Positions 7,751 through 19,496 of a DNA stretch of 32,327 nt are shown one piece after another. Each line of letters opens with the position of its first letter. Position 1 is the stretch's first letter. Both the position numbers and the translations under genes were made by a program. The DNA is taken from NCBI GenBank assembly GCA_913054495.1, contig CAJXIY010000029.1, positions 1 to 32,327 of the forward strand, written 5' to 3'. The notes below the pieces were generated by a model. It saw only the letters and a list, made by a program, of their open reading frames with translations, searched no databases and had not been told where the DNA came from. Source of the DNA: an uncultured Gammaproteobacteria bacterium (GTDB lineage Bacteria > Pseudomonadota > Gammaproteobacteria > Pseudomonadales > Pseudohongiellaceae).

Positions 7751-8689
7751 CTACGTGGATTCCTTTACGAGGGCGCTTATCCGGTTCAGTACCTCTACTC
7801 GGATAATGCTGATCCCTTTGCCGACCGGTGTCTCCAGAGCATGGCCCGATCCTTCAAACACCACCACTTCGATGTGGGGATTACCAAGCGCTTCTAATCG
7901 ATTAACACTTTCATTAGTAGGAACATTGGTATCGTCCACGCCATAGAGAACCAGAGCGGGAATCGTAACCCCATCCCAGTGCTGGATCGGATCGAAGTTT
8001 CCCACAGAATCCCAGAACTGAGTCCGGCGGATCTCTATCAGTGACCAGCGCCCGGCGTATGCGAAAAGATGCGCGAATCCCGGAAGTACGCCCATCTGCC
8101 GGATATTGTGAACCTCCTCATAGAGCAGGGCGTCATGTGCTGGGACCGCCCCACCGACCATGTTAACGACAAAGGCAAGTTCGTCCGATTGGGTAGCAAC
8201 GATGGGCGCGATGCGACCCCCTTCGCTCATTCCGATCACCCCGATCGATGAGATCGGTACAGCACCCTGCGAGCGGAGGAATTCAACCGCGGCCAGGGTG
8301 TCGGTTGCCAGATCCTCGTAACTCGACGTCCGCCAATCTCCCGCGGACGACTCCGACCCGCGTTTGTCGGGAAGCAGCACGGTGATACCTTCCCGTTGAA
8401 GGTGCTCGACAAGGGTCAGGTACCACGCATTGTTGCGAACACTGGTGCCGGACCCGTGGATGATCACTGCCGCTGGAAACGGCCCGTCACCGCTCGGAAT
8501 GAAGAGCAGGCCCTTCAAATCGAGATTCTGTGTCTGATTCCTGAATGCGATCTCCCGGAATTCGAGGTCGTCCAACCATACTCCAGAGAACGAGCGCTGA
8601 TCTTGGGGAAGCAATTGGGACAGAACCACTGGAATAACCAGGATCGCAAGCAGCAACAACCACACCGCTGGCCAACGTATTTTCCCCAT
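7751..8689 (-). CDS. Membrane-anchored or secreted alpha/beta hydrolase
   Basis: The start at 8689 is chosen because GGGAG lies five bases upstream. A GTG at 8707 would add six residues. The 312-residue product has an N-terminal hydrophobic signal or anchor segment (about 5-28). The hydrolase core follows: oxyanion-type HGSG at 78-81, nucleophile elbow GMSEGG with Ser155, acid Asp252 in YGVDDTNVP, and His283 in GSGHALE. It resembles dienelactone hydrolase/S9-like esterases of the BAAT/prolyl-oligopeptidase clan. It probably acts in the periplasm on an ester or peptide; the substrate is unknown. It is transcribed alone. Confidence 0.82.
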   Translation of the reverse strand: MGKIRWPAVWLLLLAILVIPVVLSQLLPQDQRSFSGVWLDDLEFREIAFRNQTQNLDLKGLLFIPSGDGPFPAAVIIHGSGTSVRNNAWYLTLVEHLQREGITVLLPDKRGSESSAGDWRTSSYEDLATDTLAAVEFLRSQGAVPISSIGVIGMSEGGRIAPIVATQSDELAFVVNMVGGAVPAHDALLYEEVHNIRQMGVLPGFAHLFAYAGRWSLIEIRRTQFWDSVGNFDPIQHWDGVTIPALVLYGVDDTNVPTNESVNRLEALGNPHIEVVVFEGSGHALETPVGKGISIIRVEVLNRISALVKEST

Positions 8690-8783
8690 GGTCGCTCCCA
8701 CCGACACATTCTAGTCGCTAGCCTAGTACCTGTAGCAGCTACAGATGCAAGGACATCTGGCTGATATCCAGCCTTCGTATAGT

Positions 8784-11436: not shown

Positions 11437-11467
11437 TTGCTTCTGTAGTGGGTACAGATGTTAAGCT
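11437..11467 (+). promoter_or_regulatory. MerR-type promoter/operator of the selenoprotein gene
   Basis: The -35 TTGCTT (11437-11442) is followed by a 19-bp spacer and a weak -10 TAAGCT (11462-11467). The spacer holds the dyad CTGTA-N5-TACAG at 11443-11457. Long 19-20 bp spacers with a central dyad are the hallmark of promoters that MerR-family proteins activate by DNA distortion. The first 13 bases, TTGCTTCTGTAGT, are identical in the promoter at 12671. Confidence 0.65.
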
Positions 11468-11538: not shown

Positions 11539-12243
11539 ATGACAAAGCCAATTTTAAAACTGCTATTCGTCCTGCCTCTGTTGATGGCACCGCTACCGGC
11601 GTCCCTGGCCTCACAGGCTGCGGCTGCCGAAGCCGAGTTATCGAAGGTGACCTTGTTCGTCGAGGGTATGATGAAAAGCCGCGGCGGCGTAACCTGACTA
11701 AGCTGACCAGATAGTGTTGTTGCGGCTCTGTCAGAGCTCGCCGGGGTAGATGAAGATATTGAGGTGTTTCTCGATAGGGATGCCTTCACCCTCGACTATG
11801 ACCCCGCCCTCGTAAACCTCGAGGACATGTACACCGCGATTCGCGGTTTGGGTTACGAGCCCCGTCTCAGCGCGGGAGAAGAGGTCGAGTCTGCCATCGC
11901 CGAGGCTGGCGCAGCGGTACCGGAACCTGTTGCCACGGCGCTGGCTACGGCAAAAACCGAGGGCAAGCTGGTGTTTCTCGATTTCTATGCCGAGTGGTGT
12001 CTGGCCTGTAAGGTCCTGGAGGAAAACACCCTGCTCGATTCTGCGGTGGCCAGTACCCTGGAAAAATTAGTCAGCCTCACAGTCGATACGGATCTATATA
12101 CCCCGGCCTCTCTCCACTACAACATCGTGGGAATGCCCACACTGCTTGTGCTCGACAGCGATGGCACGGAGATTTATCGATCAGTCGGTCTGATTACGCC
12201 GTCGGAACTAAACCAGGCCCTGAATGATTTGCTCAGCAGGTAG
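11539..12243 (+). CDS. Secreted HMA-thioredoxin fusion, predicted selenoprotein with UxxU
   Basis: Translation from the ATG at 11539 stays in one frame to the TAG at 12241-12243 if the TGA codons at 11695 and 11704 are read through (234 residues). Residues 1-27 form a Sec signal peptide. An HMA-like domain spans about 34-110: VTLFVEGM, then Sec53-Leu-Ser-Sec56-PDSVVAALSELAGV, then FTLDYDPALVNLEDMYTAIRGLGYEP. Aligned with the HMA pattern CxxCxxxVxxAL, the two TGA codons fall exactly on the two metal-binding Cys. The loop between GM and this motif is about seven residues longer than usual. A DsbD-gamma-like thioredoxin domain covers 130-234, with WCLAC (153-157) and cis-Pro200. Regulation by the convergent MerR suggests binding of a soft metal such as Hg in the periplasm. 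An ordinary gene caller would report only the GTG-started part from 11764. The alternative is a pseudogene with two nonsense codons. Confidence 0.8.
11707..11742 (+). promoter_or_regulatory. Candidate bacterial SECIS element
   Basis: Directly after the second TGA the mRNA can fold as follows. The upper stem GCUCU/AGAGC (11725-11729/11733-11737) closes a GUC loop. A single U (11738) is bulged. The lower stem GCG/CGC is 11722-11724/11739-11741. The first loop base is G11730, with 23 bases between it and the second TGA and 32 between it and the first. Both distances are within the roughly 16-37 nt window used for bacterial SECIS elements, and a G at the start of the loop is the expected SelB contact. 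Confidence 0.65.
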
Positions 12244-12246
12244 CAG

Positions 12247-12645
12247 TCAGGCGTCAAACAAGCTGTCGATAATGGGACATTGGGGCACATTGCCTTGATT
12301 ACACTGGGCCGCCATCGCCTGCAGCACCCCTTCCATCTTCTTCAAATCGACAATTTTCTCGGTGATCTGCCCGGCGTGGTGGATCGTCAGTTCATGCACT
12401 TCCTTGCAGGCGAAATCGCCCGAATCCACCAGGCTGAGCAAGCTATTAATTTCCTTCAGAGAAAAGCCGAGACCCCGACACTTATGGATGAAATTCAGTC
12501 GTCGAACGTCCTCGTCGCTGTATATTCTGCGGCCTGCAGGGCTACGCATTGGAGTCGGTAAGATACCTTCGCGTTCGTAGTAGCGAATCGTTTCGATGTG
12601 TACGCCTGTTTTCCTGGATAGCTCGCCAATGGCCTGAGTTTTCAT
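12247..12645 (-). CDS. MerR-family metal-responsive regulator (mercury-type three-Cys sensor)
   Basis: The start at 12645 is chosen because GGAGGG lies six bases upstream. An ATG at 12663 would add six residues. The 132-residue product has the MerR winged helix (IGELSRKTGVHIETIRYYEREGIL, then GRRIYSDEDVRRL) and a dimerisation helix. In the longer numbering Cys86, Cys121 and Cys129 (FACKEV; QCNQGNVPQCP) match the spacing of the three Hg-binding cysteines of MerR (82, 117, 126): 35 residues, then 8 rather than 9. It should repress and activate promoters with 19-bp spacers. Two such sites lie nearby, at 11437 and 12671. Its stop is three bases from that of the selenoprotein gene. The metal could also be another soft or divalent ion. 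Confidence 0.86.
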   Translation of the reverse strand: MKTQAIGELSRKTGVHIETIRYYEREGILPTPMRSPAGRRIYSDEDVRRLNFIHKCRGLGFSLKEINSLLSLVDSGDFACKEVHELTIHHAGQITEKIVDLKKMEGVLQAMAAQCNQGNVPQCPIIDSLFDA

Positions 12646-12670
12646 GCCGATCCCTCCAAGCATCTACCAC

Positions 12671-12701
12671 TTGCTTCTGTAGTAACTACAGGATACATAA
12701 T
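12671..12701 (+). promoter_or_regulatory. MerR-type promoter/operator facing the GDCCVxC gene
   Basis: The -35 TTGCTT (12671-12676), a 19-bp spacer holding the perfect dyad CTGTAGTAACTACAG (12677-12691), and the -10 CATAAT (12696-12701) form a classic MerR-family promoter directed away from merR. The same operator would also control merR itself on the other strand. It shares 13 identical leading bases with the site at 11437. Confidence 0.75.
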
Positions 12702-12859: not shown

Positions 12860-13093
12860 ATGAGTGCTAATCTGCCTGAAAGCCCCATGGGGCGGGCCCA
12901 AAAATTGGAATCCACGATTAAATGCCCCCATTGCGGATATCATCGGACAGAGACGATGCCCACGGCGTTTTGCCAGTTTTTCTATGATTGTGGGAACTGC
13001 GGCAAGACCCTGAAGCCCCTGACAACAGATTGTTGCGTGTTCTGTTCTTATGGGACAGTGCCTTGTCCACCCATGCAGGCAGGGACTTGTTGA
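12860..13093 (+). CDS. GDCCVxC-type cysteine-rich small protein
   Basis: The 77-residue protein has the CPxCG-N-CxFFYxC-CxxC pattern and the signature DCCVFCSYGTVPCPP near the end (TDCCVFC here instead of GDCCVFC). Ten or more of its residues are Cys, consistent with binding zinc or a soft metal. Members of this family are often found with mercury-resistance genes. The start at 12860 gives the usual length. An upstream TTG in frame (12746) would add a non-homologous stretch over the repeat and is rejected. Its promoter is the MerR-type site at 12671. The ribosome site is weak. The C-terminus ends ...GTC, one Cys short of the usual terminal Cys pair. Confidence 0.8.
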   Translation: MSANLPESPMGRAQKLESTIKCPHCGYHRTETMPTAFCQFFYDCGNCGKTLKPLTTDCCVFCSYGTVPCPPMQAGTC

Positions 13094-13117: not shown

Positions 13118-13673
13118 GTGAGAATTATTATGTCACTTGAATTAGTTGCACCGGGTTCATTGTCGAAACCCGGACCGGTAGGTCGATTGGTCAGATTCTT
13201 GCTCGGAATACTGTGCCTTTATGCACTCTGGGGGTCTTAAAAATATTGCATCCGACTTCGTTGAAAATCCTATAGGCCTGTTACCGAATCTGGGTCTTAT
13301 GATCCTATTTGCACTATGTATCTTTAATTACTTCGTCAACATCGGTTTTTCCAGAGACTGGTATCGCTATCCCCTGATCCTCTCCTTGATCTTCCTGCTT
13401 GCAGTCGCCACAGTCGGCTATCTGTTCACCTGTGATGCAGGCACAGAAGTGCTGGGGGTTACGGTTTTACTCTGGCTGGGATATTTCTATACTCATCTGG
13501 GCATTTCCTTTTTACTAGCCGCTGCTTTGGCTACACCAGGCTGTGAGGAGCGGGCAATACTAGAATTAGTCGGTAAAATTACCCACAGGGAATCGAAAGA
13601 GCACCTCTGCCCCGTCAGTATTCTCTCGGTAATCGATCAATGGGAAAAGCGCCGATCTCTCGAAACAGAGTAG
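13118..13673 (+). pseudogene. Four-helix membrane protein interrupted by a frameshift
   Basis: A GTG start at 13118 with GAGG upstream (or ATG 13130) opens a frame that stops at 13238-13240 after ...LGILCLYALWGS. The next frame carries ...GLKNIASDFVENPIGLL and continues to 13671-13673. Removing one base from the G run at 13230-13234 joins them as ...LYALWGLKNIAS... and gives one protein of about 185 residues. It has four membrane spans, a conserved-looking HLGISFLLAAALATPGCE stretch and a soluble tail ending EHLCP...IDQWEKRR. It follows the GDCCVxC gene in the MerR-controlled direction, so a role in metal transport or tolerance is plausible but unproven. A sequencing error, a natural mutation or programmed slippage could explain the shift. 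Confidence 0.65.
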
Positions 13674-15977: not shown

Positions 15978-16137
15978 TCCGGTACCATCAACCTGGAAAT
16001 CCAGGCAGCAGGTTTTGAAGAATTCATAGTAGCAACAATACCCCGCCGCCGCTTCAAATGGCTTTTACTATGGTCAATTTATTGCTAATGTCTTGAAAAA
16101 GAGATACCAAAGATCATTGGGCTCGAGGAGAACAATA

Positions 16138-17244
16138 ATGCGCTTTCACACCCCCCTGTCGATGTGTGTGGTATTGAGCTTTACGCTCTGCATACCACTG
16201 GCTTCTGCCCAGATCACCCCCGAAGAAATCTCCACTGAAACCATGCCCGAGCCCGGAACCAACTGGTTTATCTCCAAGACGAGCAATGGCGGCTATATAT
16301 TCGATGCCAGCACCGGTGAAATGCAGGGAATGTTGTCGCTCTCGCGCCGGACCCCTGCCGTCACCATGTGGAACCCGCGCCGGGAGTTTTATGCCGCCGA
16401 GTCCTACATCTCCCGTGGCGTTCATGGCGAGCGTACGGACATCGTTGCTATCTACGATTTTGACAATCTGAGGCCTGTGGCTGAGGTCGTCATCCCCAAT
16501 CATATGGCACGGCTTTCGGTACGTAATCATATGGGCTTGATGAATAACGGGCGCCATCTGGCGGTGCATAATATGAATCCTGGGCACTCGGTTTCTATTG
16601 TGGACGTCCAGGATCGTGTCTTTATCTATGAAGTCTCAACCCCGGGCTGCGCCGTGATCATGCCGGTGGCGGAGAGTGACTTCCTGCAGGTCTGTGGCGA
16701 TGGCACCCTGCAATTGATTCAGCTCGACCTCAGCGGCTTCGAACAGAATCGGGTTCGCAGCGAGGTGTTTTTTAACGTGATAGACGATGCGGTGTATGAC
16801 CGCACCACCCGTTCCGCCGATGGCTGGTTTTTAGTGACTCACGCAGGCACCATTTATGAAGCCAGCACCTCGGGAGCCATTATTAATATTAGCGATGGCT
16901 GGAGTTTGTTGCCCGCAGATGAAGAAGGCTGGCGCCCTGGCGGTGGCGAGTTCATTAGCGCCCACCGGCAACTTGGCCTTCTCTTTGTCGCCATGCACGA
17001 GGGTGAGGTTGATACCCATCATGAGCCGGGCACAGAGATTTGGGTATTCGATGTGGATACTAGGCGTCGTATCTATCGCATCGAGCTGGAGACTCCGGTG
17101 AACAGCCTGATGGTGACCCAGGAAGACAAACCCAAGTTGATCGTTGCCGACAAGGATGGCGGCACCCATGTCTATGATGCGCTGACCTTCGTCCATGAGC
17201 GCACGATTGAGACACCGGGCGCCTCGATGTTCGAGGATTTCTAG
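16138..17244 (+). CDS. mauB: Quinoprotein amine dehydrogenase, large (heavy) subunit
   Basis: The ATG at 16138 is preceded by GAGGAG at 16125-16130, giving 368 residues with a Sec signal peptide (cleavage near ASA-QI). The mature protein is a seven-bladed propeller of the methylamine/aralkylamine dehydrogenase heavy chain family. Typical parts are MLSLSRRTPAV, AAESYISRGVHGERTDIVAIYD, the CxxV...CGDGTL pair, GGGEFISAH and the C-terminal WVFDVDTRRRIYRIEL. It would pair with the TTQ-bearing light chain encoded downstream as a periplasmic heterotetramer oxidising a primary amine to aldehyde. Aralkylamine versus methylamine specificity is undecided, so aauB is an equally possible name. It is the first gene of a five-gene operon. 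Confidence 0.87.
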   Translation: MRFHTPLSMCVVLSFTLCIPLASAQITPEEISTETMPEPGTNWFISKTSNGGYIFDASTGEMQGMLSLSRRTPAVTMWNPRREFYAAESYISRGVHGERTDIVAIYDFDNLRPVAEVVIPNHMARLSVRNHMGLMNNGRHLAVHNMNPGHSVSIVDVQDRVFIYEVSTPGCAVIMPVAESDFLQVCGDGTLQLIQLDLSGFEQNRVRSEVFFNVIDDAVYDRTTRSADGWFLVTHAGTIYEASTSGAIINISDGWSLLPADEEGWRPGGGEFISAHRQLGLLFVAMHEGEVDTHHEPGTEIWVFDVDTRRRIYRIELETPVNSLMVTQEDKPKLIVADKDGGTHVYDALTFVHERTIETPGASMFEDF

Positions 17245-17247
17245 CCG

Positions 17248-17853
17248 ATGCTGGATCCAGTCATTCTCCGCATCATTTCAGTTGGCTTCGCGCTACTGTT
17301 TATCTTTGCTGCTGCGCACAAGTTCAACAATAAGCTCCAATTTCTCGGCATTCTCGAGGCGTACCAGATTCTCCCAGGCGCCATGCTCGGTCTCACCGTC
17401 AACGTGATTCCCGTGCTTGAGCTGATGCTGGGACTGGCATGGGCATTGACCGCCCTGCTGTTAATACAGATAACATTGCTGCCCCTGATAAGTGCCATGC
17501 TCCTGATCACTTACGCGATGGCTATCGCCATTAACCTGTTTCGTGGTCGCTCCTACATTGACTGTGGTTGTGGTTTTTCATCAATAGCCGGATCGACTCG
17601 CAGCGAATCGAATTCTGGCGGCATTCAACAACTGTCGAAGGCGTTGGTAATGCGCAACTGTGTGTTGAGTGTCGTGGCACTGTTAGCTGCAGCTTCCCCC
17701 TCGTCACGTGAATTAGGATTCATGGATTTCCTGAGTCTGGTAATGGCGAGTTTTACACTAATATTGTTATATGGTGCTTTCAATCAGTTGCTGGTAAATC
17801 GCAATATCATCGGCGCCTGGTTAAACTCGCCAGGGAGCAACTCACATGGTTGA
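17248..17853 (+). CDS. mauE: MauE/DoxX-like membrane protein for amine dehydrogenase maturation
   Basis: The 201-residue inner-membrane protein has about four to five spans, starting LDPVILRIISVGFALLFIFAAAHKF. A CGCGF motif follows an RGR-SYID segment at about 103-113, the conserved Cys pair of MauE. MauE is needed, with MauD, for correct light-chain maturation and disulfide formation. It begins three bases after the large-subunit stop and overlaps mauD by eight bases, so translation is coupled. Confidence 0.85.
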   Translation: MLDPVILRIISVGFALLFIFAAAHKFNNKLQFLGILEAYQILPGAMLGLTVNVIPVLELMLGLAWALTALLLIQITLLPLISAMLLITYAMAIAINLFRGRSYIDCGCGFSSIAGSTRSESNSGGIQQLSKALVMRNCVLSVVALLAAASPSSRELGFMDFLSLVMASFTLILLYGAFNQLLVNRNIIGAWLNSPGSNSHG

Positions 17854-18496
17854 AGCCCTGGTAATTTCCAACATCATCCTATGGATAGTTGTGATCGTTC
17901 TCGCCCTGCTCGTATTTGCCCTCACGCGACAGGTCGGTATCCTGTTCGAACGAGTAGCGCCGGCCGGTGCCTTAATGCCCACATCCGGGCCCAAGGTCGG
18001 CGAACTCACTACAGAACTTGCGCTCAGCACCATAGCGGGTAAGCCCTTGCACATTGGTGGCAGCAATGAATCCGGTCTTGCTTCCTTTATATTGTTTATC
18101 TCTCCCACCTGCCCGGTGTGTAAATCTCTGGTGCCTACCGCCAAGGCCCTGGTCAACTCGGAGAAAAATCGCATGCAGCTTATTTTCGCCAGTGACGGCG
18201 ATGAGCTTGAAAAACACAAGTCCTATGCCCGAGACCTGGGGCTGGATGACTATCCCTATGTGCTGTCCGAGGCGCTGGGCCGGACCTTCGAGGTGAGCAA
18301 ACTGCCTTTCGCAGTTTTAATTGCCAGTGACGGCACGCTCAGAGGCAAGGGCCTGGTGAATACACGGGAACACATGGAGAGCCTGATCGAGTCGATGGAT
18401 ACCGGCATTACCACCGTGCAGGAATATGTCAATAATTCACACGCAGACACAGCCAGTTCAGAATTCGAGGCTTCAGCAATGGAAGAAACATCATGA
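17846..18496 (+). CDS. mauD: MauD, thioredoxin-like disulfide protein for amine dehydrogenase maturation
   Basis: The 216-residue protein has an N-terminal membrane anchor (about 5-27) and a periplasmic thioredoxin-like domain with the CPVC active site (Cys89-Cys92). The domain carries SKLPFAVLIASDGTLRGKG with its cis-Pro loop near 150-155. MauD is thought to form or isomerise the six disulfides of the light chain. It overlaps mauE at the 5' end and mauA by an ATGA at 18493-18496. Confidence 0.88.
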   Translation: MVEALVISNIILWIVVIVLALLVFALTRQVGILFERVAPAGALMPTSGPKVGELTTELALSTIAGKPLHIGGSNESGLASFILFISPTCPVCKSLVPTAKALVNSEKNRMQLIFASDGDELEKHKSYARDLGLDDYPYVLSEALGRTFEVSKLPFAVLIASDGTLRGKGLVNTREHMESLIESMDTGITTVQEYVNNSHADTASSEFEASAMEETS

Positions 18497-19029
18497 ATAT
18501 CGAACGCATAATAGACCGCGGCTACTACTGGATCGATGAGAATGCGCGCAAGACCAGCCTGGCCTTGGCACGCAGGCTGTCGCGCCGACATTTCCTCTCA
18601 CGGCTGGGCATGATCATCGCCGGTGCGGCGGCATTTCCCTTATTGCCCGTGGCGCGATCCTTCGCCCAGAGCTCGGTAGAGGAAGTGGGCGACCCCCAGA
18701 GCTGTGAATACTGGCGTTACTGCGCGATGAGCGGAACCCTGTGTTCCTGCTGCGGTGGTTCTTATTCTTCCTGTCCACCTGGCGCCGAGCCTTCACCAAT
18801 TACCTGGGTGGGTACCTGCCGTAATCCCGTAGATAACCGTAACTACTTGATGTCTTATAACGATTGCTGCGGCAAGTCAGTGTGTTCCCGCTGTAGTTGC
18901 CACAATACCGAGGGCGACAAGCCGGTGTATTTTAATAGCAACAGCAGCACCGTGCTGTGGTGTTTCGGCACCGAGAACACCAGCTATCACTGCACCGTGT
19001 CCCTGGTACTGGGCACGACGGACGAATGA
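18493..19029 (+). CDS. mauA: Quinoprotein amine dehydrogenase, TTQ light chain
   Basis: The 178-residue precursor has a long twin-arginine-type leader (SRRHFLSRLGM at 30-40) and a Cys-rich mature part with CEYWRYC and CSCCGGS. Compared with Paracoccus methylamine dehydrogenase numbering (offset 48), Trp105 and Trp156 are Trp57 and Trp108, which crosslink into tryptophan tryptophylquinone. Asp124 matches Asp76 and Thr168 matches Thr122. The position of Asp32, important for TTQ formation, is Ser80 here. The protein would be the catalytic subunit, passing electrons from amines to a blue copper protein or cytochrome. It overlaps mauD and the cytochrome gene by ATGA. No mauG-like gene is in the window. 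Confidence 0.9.
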   Translation: MNIERIIDRGYYWIDENARKTSLALARRLSRRHFLSRLGMIIAGAAAFPLLPVARSFAQSSVEEVGDPQSCEYWRYCAMSGTLCSCCGGSYSSCPPGAEPSPITWVGTCRNPVDNRNYLMSYNDCCGKSVCSRCSCHNTEGDKPVYFNSNSSTVLWCFGTENTSYHCTVSLVLGTTDE

Positions 19030-19496
19030 ACTCGGGTGCGGCAGTGACCGCTGCCAACATATTATTCCCCCCGAAGTACCGACAGCTTAAACCATACCTG
19101 TTGGTACCGGTCTTGTTGCTATTTTTGATAGCCAGCAATCTTGCTTCAGCCGCCAGTCCACGTATCAACTACCTGCTTTACTGTAGCGGTTGCCATCGTC
19201 CCGGCGGCGAAGGCAAACCACCCCATGTACCCACCCTGCATCATGAGCTGGGTAGGATGTTATCGGTGCCGCAGATGCGAGCTTACCTGGTGCGCATACC
19301 GGGTGCGACCCAGGCCCCCATTAACGATACCGAACTGACTGGAGTAATAAACTGGGTGCTGGAAGAGTTTAATGCCGATACCTTGCCCGAGGGTTTCGAA
19401 TATTTGAGCGTCGAAGAAGTCACTGCGGCGCGGAAGAAACTATTGGCAGATCCGCTCAAGTATCGAACGCGATACTGGAAGGCTTATCCGAACTAA
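19026..19496 (+). CDS. Small c-type cytochrome of the amine dehydrogenase operon
   Basis: The start at 19026 overlaps the light-chain stop (ATGA), giving 156 residues. A longer frame from 18957 is rejected because it would lie inside mauA. A hydrophobic signal or anchor (about 23-42) precedes one haem-c motif CSGCH (Cys53, Cys56, His57). The tail EVTAARKKLLADPLKYR is helical. It probably receives electrons from the amine dehydrogenase in the periplasm. It is the last gene of the operon. Confidence 0.85.
   Translation: MNSGAAVTAANILFPPKYRQLKPYLLVPVLLLFLIASNLASAASPRINYLLYCSGCHRPGGEGKPPHVPTLHHELGRMLSVPQMRAYLVRIPGATQAPINDTELTGVINWVLEEFNADTLPEGFEYLSVEEVTAARKKLLADPLKYRTRYWKAYPN

What the first reader, a model, noticed from the sequence alone, without database searches (positions are those of the whole stretch)
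11539..12243. Double-selenocysteine HMA domain (UxxU) fused to a thioredoxin domain
Two TGA codons (11695-11697, 11704-11706) lie in an otherwise open frame from a signal peptide through an HMA-like domain into a DsbD-gamma-like thioredoxin domain. They fall exactly on the two metal-binding cysteines of the HMA motif: CxxCxxxVxxAL becomes UxxUxxxVxxAL. Random nonsense mutation would be unlikely to hit both Cys codons and leave the rest of the frame clean. Selenolates bind Hg and other soft metals far more tightly than thiols, and the gene sits in a MerR-type regulon. I know of selenoproteins with UxxC or CxxU but do not recall a described UxxU HMA-thioredoxin fusion. Gene callers would truncate it to the part from 11764.
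Basis: partly seen in the sequence, partly recalled or inferred. Interest (0 to 1): 0.95.

Follow-up and report, generated by a model that had tools for sequence, protein, structure and literature searches.

The report
Double-selenocysteine metal-binding thioredoxin fusion
A conserved gene, found mostly in uncultured gammaproteobacteria and cut short by standard gene calling, is predicted to make a secreted protein that would grip a toxic metal, likely mercury, with two selenium atoms in place of the usual sulfurs, and that carries its own thioredoxin (reducing-type) domain.

Summary
Frame 11539-12243 has TGA at exactly the two metal-ligand positions of an HMA domain and runs on into a DsbD-gamma-like thioredoxin domain. 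In 27 further loci with both domains, both TGAs are present every time (28 of 28 with the window); no Cys form was found. The 17 codons before the first TGA are under strong purifying selection. A hairpin 32 and 23 nt after the two TGAs fits the published bacterial SECIS model, is paired in all sequences and shows compensatory changes. The host has selA, selB, selD and a tRNA-Sec (anticodon TCA). TGA ends 14 of 30 window genes, so a general TGA=Trp code is excluded. A MerR-type operator precedes the gene in 20 of 28 loci, and one relative abuts a merR-T-P-F-A cluster. Best reading: a Sec-dependent periplasmic soft-metal (probably Hg) binder with a built-in reductase. UxxU metal-binding selenoproteins are already catalogued (NF041115); this protein fails that family's cut-off, and the thioredoxin fusion is not among the 119 families of a 2026 review. 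Sec incorporation and metal binding are untested.

The parts
11437..11466 (+). MerR-type promoter/operator TTGCTTCTGTAGTGGGTACAGATGTTAAGC
   Evidence: dyad TGTAGTNNNTACAG; within 1 mismatch upstream of the gene in 20 of 28 loci (offsets -204 to -263 from TGA1), against 75 of 1120 random 540-bp stretches of the same loci (some overlap real sites). -35/-10 assignment by eye.
11539..12243 (+). Complete UxxU HMA-thioredoxin gene read through two TGA codons (234 aa)
11539..11631 (+). Likely signal peptide (residues 1-31)
   Evidence: By eye: basic start, hydrophobic stretch, Ala-rich end; residues 1-31 have pLDDT under 50 in the model. No predictor run.
11638..11868 (+). HMA domain, about residues 34-110
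   Evidence: Pfam HMA (control); model of residues 29-113 alone matches ATP7B HMA 6a71 and MerP 1osd (TMt 0.91, rmsd 1.1)
11695..11697 (+). First TGA, predicted Sec53 (first HMA metal ligand)
   Evidence: TGA in 28 of 28 loci
11704..11706 (+). Second TGA, predicted Sec56 (second HMA metal ligand)
   Evidence: TGA in 28 of 28 loci
11725..11737 (+). SECIS-like hairpin GCUCU-GUC-AGAGC; 32 nt between TGA1 and the loop, 23 nt between TGA2 and the loop
   Evidence: 130 of 130 cells paired, 3 of 5 pairs with changes on both sides; codons GCT CTG TCA GAG nearly frozen; in the lowest-energy fold of 27 of 28 loci (not L043)
11917..12240 (+). Thioredoxin domain, about residues 127-234, DsbD-gamma-like, with WCLAC at 11995-12009
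12247..12663 (-). MerR-family regulator, convergent
   Evidence: Best NCBIfam model TIGR02051 MerR (mercury) 133.4 bits, below its cut-off 150.85; adjacent convergent MerR-family ORF in 15 of 28 loci
12671..12701 (+). Second MerR-type operator/promoter, reading right
   Evidence: direction by eye
12860..13093 (+). GDCCVxC-domain protein (Cys form), probable regulon member
   Evidence: NF041374 92.3 bits, cut-off 40 (given from 12746); related ORF in 8 of 28 loci
13221..13673 (+). Small protein, membrane-type by eye, probable regulon member
   Evidence: No NCBIfam hit at E<=0.01; cluster of related ORFs in 8 of 28 loci

Best explanation
The gene at 11539-12243 is predicted to encode a secreted selenoprotein with two selenocysteines (UxxU) at the metal-ligand positions of an HMA domain fused to a DsbD-gamma-like thioredoxin domain, and it likely binds Hg(II) or a similar soft metal in the periplasm under the likely control of a neighbouring MerR-type regulator. 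Steps shown by the calls: both TGAs are invariant in the loci found; selection acts on both sides of them; a SECIS-like hairpin with compensatory changes lies at the right distance for both; the host has the Sec machinery; the two parts have HMA and thioredoxin folds in the models; the gene sits in a MerR-type context. Steps inferred: UGA is decoded as Sec at both sites by one shared hairpin; the protein is exported; the two selenolates bind the metal; the fused WCxxC thioredoxin domain, fed by a DsbD-type donor, reduces the diselenide that would otherwise form in the oxidising periplasm, so that the trap can be reused; the metal is then passed to a MerT/MerC/MerF-type transporter or held.
For: TGA/TGA in 28 of 28 loci and in one further intact copy on a contig outside that set (L147). 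24 of 80 database hits reach the motif and all 24 read W at both places, as code-4 gene calls would give; some match loci L034 and L035 by eye, where the DNA has TGA. No Cys form among them. Purifying selection upstream of TGA1: dN 0.148, dS 1.57, 25 loci. Hairpin: 130 of 130 cells paired, 3 of 5 pairs with changes on both sides; 0 of 500 shuffles reach the observed cells paired, both-side changes or covariation score (188 of 500 reach the number of further pair types); 2.2% of synonymous variants keep it; loop 3 nt, G first, spacing 32 and 23 nt, within the bSECIS rules quoted in PMC13188914. Sec machinery of the host. In the 22 genomes that hold the 27 other loci, SelB is over cut-off in 18, tRNA-Sec in 18, at least one of the two in 19. 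TGA ends 14 of 30 window genes. Mer context: L027 has merR, merT, merP, merF (102.5 bits, cut-off 50) and merA (539.4, cut-off 454.45) beside the gene.
Against: No direct proof of Sec or of metal binding. Within the family selA does not discriminate: 15 of 18 carriers and 78 of 119 non-carriers have it. Folding energy after TGA2 is not lower than in synonymous variants (z -1.56 to +0.63 over 25 loci); the hairpin is missing from the lowest-energy fold of L043; Rfam has no match in the window at gathering score. The helix was taken from these sequences, which favours it. One frameshifted copy exists (L148). The MerR is below the cut-off of the mercury model; the MerC-like (L022), MerT (L027) and MerP (L027) proteins are below theirs too; one mer cluster with merA among 28 loci is a thin basis for Hg; 8 of 28 loci lack an operator within one mismatch. 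No match over cut-off to Sec-type formate dehydrogenase was found in the host, so no other selenoprotein of the host was shown.
Confidence: 0.65

Rival explanations
1. The UxxU protein is a redox enzyme rather than a metal carrier: the HMA-fold domain is a diselenide/selenol catalytic centre (for example reducing peroxides, selenite or a metal ion) that takes electrons from the fused thioredoxin domain.
For: Fusion to a WCxxC thioredoxin domain of DsbD-gamma type; a review holds that most uncharacterised selenoproteins likely serve redox functions (PMC13188914, section 7 parts 1 and 2 read).
Against: The two predicted Sec sit at the HMA metal-ligand positions, and neighbours in several loci are metal-resistance types.
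Confidence: 0.22
2. The metal is not mercury but Cu, Ag, Cd, Pb or Zn; the protein works as a selenium-based metallochaperone in another MerR-type regulon.
For: The MerR scores 133.4 with the Hg model but also 116.6 (CadR-PbrR) and 114.5 (CueR), all below cut-off; a transporter family that looks RND-type by eye recurs in 6 of 28 loci.
Against: The best model is mercury MerR; MerC-like proteins in 5 of 28 loci, and one locus with MerT/MerP/MerF/MerA.
Confidence: 0.25
3. The genome reads TGA as tryptophan (code 4), giving WxxW.
For: 24 database proteins have W at both positions.
Against: TGA is the stop of 14 of the 30 window genes that I took, and none of the other 29 has an internal TGA once the frame of the gene at 12860 is set right.
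Confidence: 0.01
4. A pseudogene, or two pieces separated by stops: nonsense mutations or sequencing errors, with only the part from 11764 translated.
For: One frameshifted relative (L148); gene calling truncates it.
Against: 28 of 28 TGA/TGA, constraint upstream, conserved hairpin.
Confidence: 0.02

Closest known systems
NCBIfam NF041115 UxxU_metal_bind ('metal-binding (seleno)protein'; 'putative mercuric reductase' in reviews)
   Same: Metal-binding selenoprotein with UxxU (motif as listed in PMC9312934 and PMC13188914); the model aligns with the HMA part here (residues 33-107)
   Different: 74-position single-domain model; this protein scores 30.9 bits against a cut-off of 95 and has a fused thioredoxin domain; 0 of 398 phylum genomes had a match over that cut-off. 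I saw no member sequence of NF041115.
MerP (TIGR02052) and the MerT/CopZ fusion-like selenoprotein NF045683
   Same: HMA fold (1osd MerP, TMt 0.91); mer-type neighbours in some loci
   Different: 18.9 bits against a cut-off of 92.55 for MerP; L027 has a separate Cys-type MerP beside the UxxU gene (56.9 bits, also below cut-off)
DsbD C-terminal (gamma) domain
   Same: Fold and active-site type; top structural hit 1vrs_D
   Different: Only the end of the DsbD model matches (positions 463-572 of 574), 71.5 bits against a cut-off of 330
TsoB rhodanese/DsbD fusion-like selenoprotein (NF045694)
   Same: A DsbD-like thioredoxin part in a protein listed with two Sec
   Different: Only the thioredoxin part matches, 45.3 bits against a cut-off of 805
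Prx-like and FmdB-type UxxU selenoproteins
   Same: UxxU motif (Table 1 of PMC13188914)
   Different: Other folds or families by their listed domains (PF00578, TIGR02605)
GOS 'Mercuric transport protein MerP' selenoprotein (PMC2398784)
   Same: A Sec-containing MerP-type protein from marine metagenomes
   Different: The table row reads 2, 1, 0 (column heads not in the passage seen); the sequences are in a supplement that I could not open, so identity or difference is unknown

Membership tests
Bacterial selenoprotein | In-frame UGA at a functional Cys position with conserved flanks on both sides | tested here: met
   28 of 28 loci TGA/TGA; dN 0.148, dS 1.57 upstream, 25 loci
Bacterial selenoprotein | bSECIS: 3-9 nt loop, 4-16 bp stem, G in first two loop positions, 16-37 nt from UGA, MFE <= -7.5 | tested here: met
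   Rules from PMC13188914; loop GUC, 5-bp core, 32 and 23 nt; MFE of the 48 nt after TGA2 -8.6 to -15.7 in 28 loci, hairpin in the lowest-energy fold of 27; covariation. No Rfam match in the window at gathering score
Bacterial selenoprotein | Host has selA, selB, selC, selD | tested here: met
   Own genome. Other hosts: 18 of 22 for SelB and 18 of 22 for tRNA-Sec
Bacterial selenoprotein | Cys-containing orthologues at the same place (Sec/Cys pair) | tested here: not met
   None among 28 loci and 24 motif-bearing proteins; a usual criterion of discovery, not a requirement. Cys occurs at these sites in remote HMA domains
Bacterial selenoprotein | Selenium in the protein | not testable with these tools
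   Needs 75Se labelling or mass spectrometry
NF041115 UxxU_metal_bind | Score over the curated cut-off (95 bits) | tested here: not met
   30.9 bits
HMA domain (PF00403) | Gathering score 24.8 | tested here: inconclusive
   29.0 with Cys at the TGA sites; 17.7 with X there, so the pass depends on reading the sites as Cys-like
HMA domain (PF00403) | beta-alpha-beta-beta-alpha-beta fold | tested here: met
   Model of the domain alone, mean pLDDT 79.8; best hits HMA domains and MerP
Thioredoxin domain (PF00085) | Gathering score and WCxxC | tested here: met
   40.8 against 23.5; W153-C154-L-A-C157
MerP (TIGR02052) | Score over the cut-off (92.55) | tested here: not met
   18.9 bits
MerR, mercury type (TIGR02051), for the neighbour | Score over the cut-off (150.85) | tested here: not met
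   133.4 bits, its best model

The most novel reading that the evidence does not exclude
A Sec-obligate family, with no Cys form found, in which two selenolates on an HMA fold make a periplasmic mercury trap with its own covalently attached reductase, both Sec being inserted from one shared SECIS: a diselenide/dithiol relay that captures, and perhaps reduces or hands over, Hg(II) ahead of the classical mer transporters.
Probability: 0.4. Interest if true: 0.88.

Novelty: new variant of a known kind. Interest (0 to 1): 0.76.

Why it matters
It would be a selenoprotein family that uses paired selenolates as metal ligands instead of a single catalytic Sec, with no Cys fallback found, which makes directly testable why evolution pays for selenium in metal detoxification. 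It also gives a compact natural test case for insertion of two Sec nine bases apart from one bacterial SECIS, and it shows a gene class that gene calling cuts in half or reads as WxxW.

Tried and rejected
Genome-wide TGA=Trp: rejected, TGA ends 14 of 30 window genes (the start 12855 used there was off frame and gave three false internal TGAs; from 12860 there is none). Pseudogene: rejected by conservation. Unusual overall RNA stability as an argument: rejected, z -1.56 to +0.63 against synonymous variants; only the exact hairpin is unusual. selA co-occurrence inside the family as proof: rejected, not discriminating. Membership in NF041115 or MerP: rejected by cut-offs. Stand-alone versions of this N-terminal domain: an 81-residue query gave 2 hits at E<=1e-5, a fragment that runs into the linker and a piece that starts after the second TGA. 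Plasmid carriage: no match of an 80-residue query in 72,556 plasmid records. Sec formate dehydrogenase in the host: best match 101 bits against a cut-off of 814.2, no TGA inside. Evenly drawn class sample of 369 genomes: in the listed matches only the window's own gene reaches back beyond query position 84 (the match table is cut). Rfam: nothing at gathering score in the window; a permissive search of L022 gave seven matches far below gathering score and none near the gene. The whole-chain structure searches were filled by thioredoxins; the domain alone found HMA chains. Paper searches on this subject; passages only were seen of PMC9312934, PMC2398784, PMC12013277 and PMC1088965; of PMC13188914 passages and section 7 parts 1 and 2 of 3 (39, 43).

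Full report

Is the TGA pair real? A protein search of 5.8 billion sequences gave 80 hits. 24 of them reach the motif and all 24 read W at both positions; 52 begin after the second TGA, which is how gene callers treat a stop; four are other thioredoxin-type proteins. W is what a code-4 gene call writes for TGA: by eye, several of these proteins match loci L034 and L035, where the DNA has TGA. A scan of the collection of 84,980 species genomes found 312 relatives and kept the best 80, 79 loci. In 27 of them (L022-L048) the match spans both domains; in the other 52 it lies in the thioredoxin part (from residue 104 on, in L100 from 64). In all 27 and the window both positions are TGA (28 of 28). 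Identity to the window goes down to about 30% for a locus labelled Planctomycetota (L048). Among 25 of these 28 (L023, L025 and L037 left out as close relatives of others) the 17 codons before TGA1 have dN 0.148 and dS 1.57, pooled over pairs. If translation ended at, or began after, the TGAs, these codons would not be expected to be kept in this way.

SECIS. After the second TGA there is a hairpin, GCUCU-GUC-AGAGC, at 11725-11737, with 32 nt between TGA1 and its loop and 23 nt between TGA2 and its loop. The rules quoted in PMC13188914 (Fig. 2 legend, passage) ask for a 3-9 nt loop, a 4-16 bp stem, a G in the first two loop positions, 16-37 nt spacing and MFE of -7.5 or lower; one hairpin meets them for both codons. 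In 29 sequences (26 distinct) 130 of 130 cells are paired and 3 of 5 pairs show changes on both sides; 0 of 500 shuffles reach the observed values of four measures, while 188 of 500 reach the fifth, the number of further pair types. That tool warns that a helix drawn from the same sequences is favoured. The codons CTG (25 of 25) and TCA (all 22 Ser) are frozen at the hairpin while other conserved residues use several codons. Of synonymous variants 2.2% keep it. Against this: the folding energy of the whole stretch is ordinary, the hairpin is not in the lowest-energy fold of L043, and Rfam reports nothing in the window at gathering score.

Host machinery. The window's genome (3.39 Mb, 201 contigs) has selA, selD, tRNA-Sec with anticodon TCA and a selB that is cut by a contig break, its parts sharing 18 residues. 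The 27 other loci lie in 22 genomes; SelB is over cut-off in 18 and tRNA-Sec in 18; only G014, G020 and G022 lack both. In the window's family of 137 genomes, 18 carry the gene, all in one genus (a nineteenth hit, in G484, is 27 bases long without the motif, and is dropped). 15 of these 18 have selA, as do 78 of the 119 others, so co-occurrence there proves little. New among them are L147, intact with TGA/TGA, and L148 (G473), frameshifted at the motif. TGA ends 14 of 30 window genes, so it is not a sense codon in general.

Context and mechanism. A MerR-type dyad, TGTAGTNNNTACAG after a TTG box, lies 204-263 bases before TGA1 within one mismatch in 20 of 28 loci, against 75 of 1120 random stretches. 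MerR-family ORFs are near in 18 of 28 loci, adjacent and convergent in 15. The window's MerR scores best with the mercury model (133.4 bits) but below its cut-off; its three C-terminal cysteines resemble the Hg ligands of MerR (recalled). Related neighbours include MerC-like proteins in 5 of 28 loci (the one tested, from L022, 81.7 bits, cut-off 140) and GDCCVxC proteins in 8. In L027 the gene adjoins merR (129.6, below cut-off), merT (100.8, cut-off 150), merP with Cys (56.9, cut-off 92.55), merF (102.5, cut-off 50) and merA (539.4, cut-off 454.45); merA was seen in this locus alone of the 28 by motif. I infer a secreted soft-metal binder, probably for Hg(II). Its two selenolates would oxidise to a diselenide in the periplasm, which gives a reason for a covalently attached DsbD-gamma-like reductase. 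Export, Sec insertion, metal identity and reduction are untested.

What is known. UxxU metal-binding selenoproteins are in print: PMC9312934 and PMC13188914 list a 'putative mercuric reductase'/'metal-binding protein' (NF041115), and PMC2398784 lists a Sec MerP (passages seen). The original Olavius symbiont paper is not held. I read all of Table 1 of PMC13188914 (119 families by its own count) and saw no HMA-thioredoxin fusion; the listings of searches showed none. These cover only open-licence papers. By score the protein is neither NF041115 nor MerP. I rate it a new variant of a known kind: a new, apparently Sec-obligate architecture.

Noticed in passing
window 7751-8707 (-), operator at 8750 reading left: An alpha/beta hydrolase (weak esterase EstD match, 67.9 bits, cut-off 600) has the same MerR-type operator at its 5' side; a protein that looks similar by eye lies upstream of the UxxU gene in L027. 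It may belong to the same regulon.
   Followed up: partly
L027 8001-11630: UxxU gene next to a merR-merT-merP-merF-merA cluster.
   Followed up: yes
L148 (G473): A copy frameshifted at the motif, either decay or a sequencing error.
   Followed up: no
L149 (G484) 1501-1527: A 27-base match (93%) to query bases 88-114, that is window 11727-11753 around the hairpin, without the GMMK motif in any frame: chance, or another gene with a similar SECIS.
   Followed up: no
G475, G476, G480, G521: Four genomes of the genus carry two copies of the UxxU gene.
   Followed up: no
window 16093-19496: By eye, a cluster resembling an aromatic/methylamine dehydrogenase operon (large subunit, MauE- and MauD-like, small subunit, cytochrome); recalled, not tested.
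   Followed up: no
L048: The Planctomycetota-labelled copy has a lipobox-like LVCGVGC before the HMA domain, so it may be a lipoprotein.
   Followed up: no
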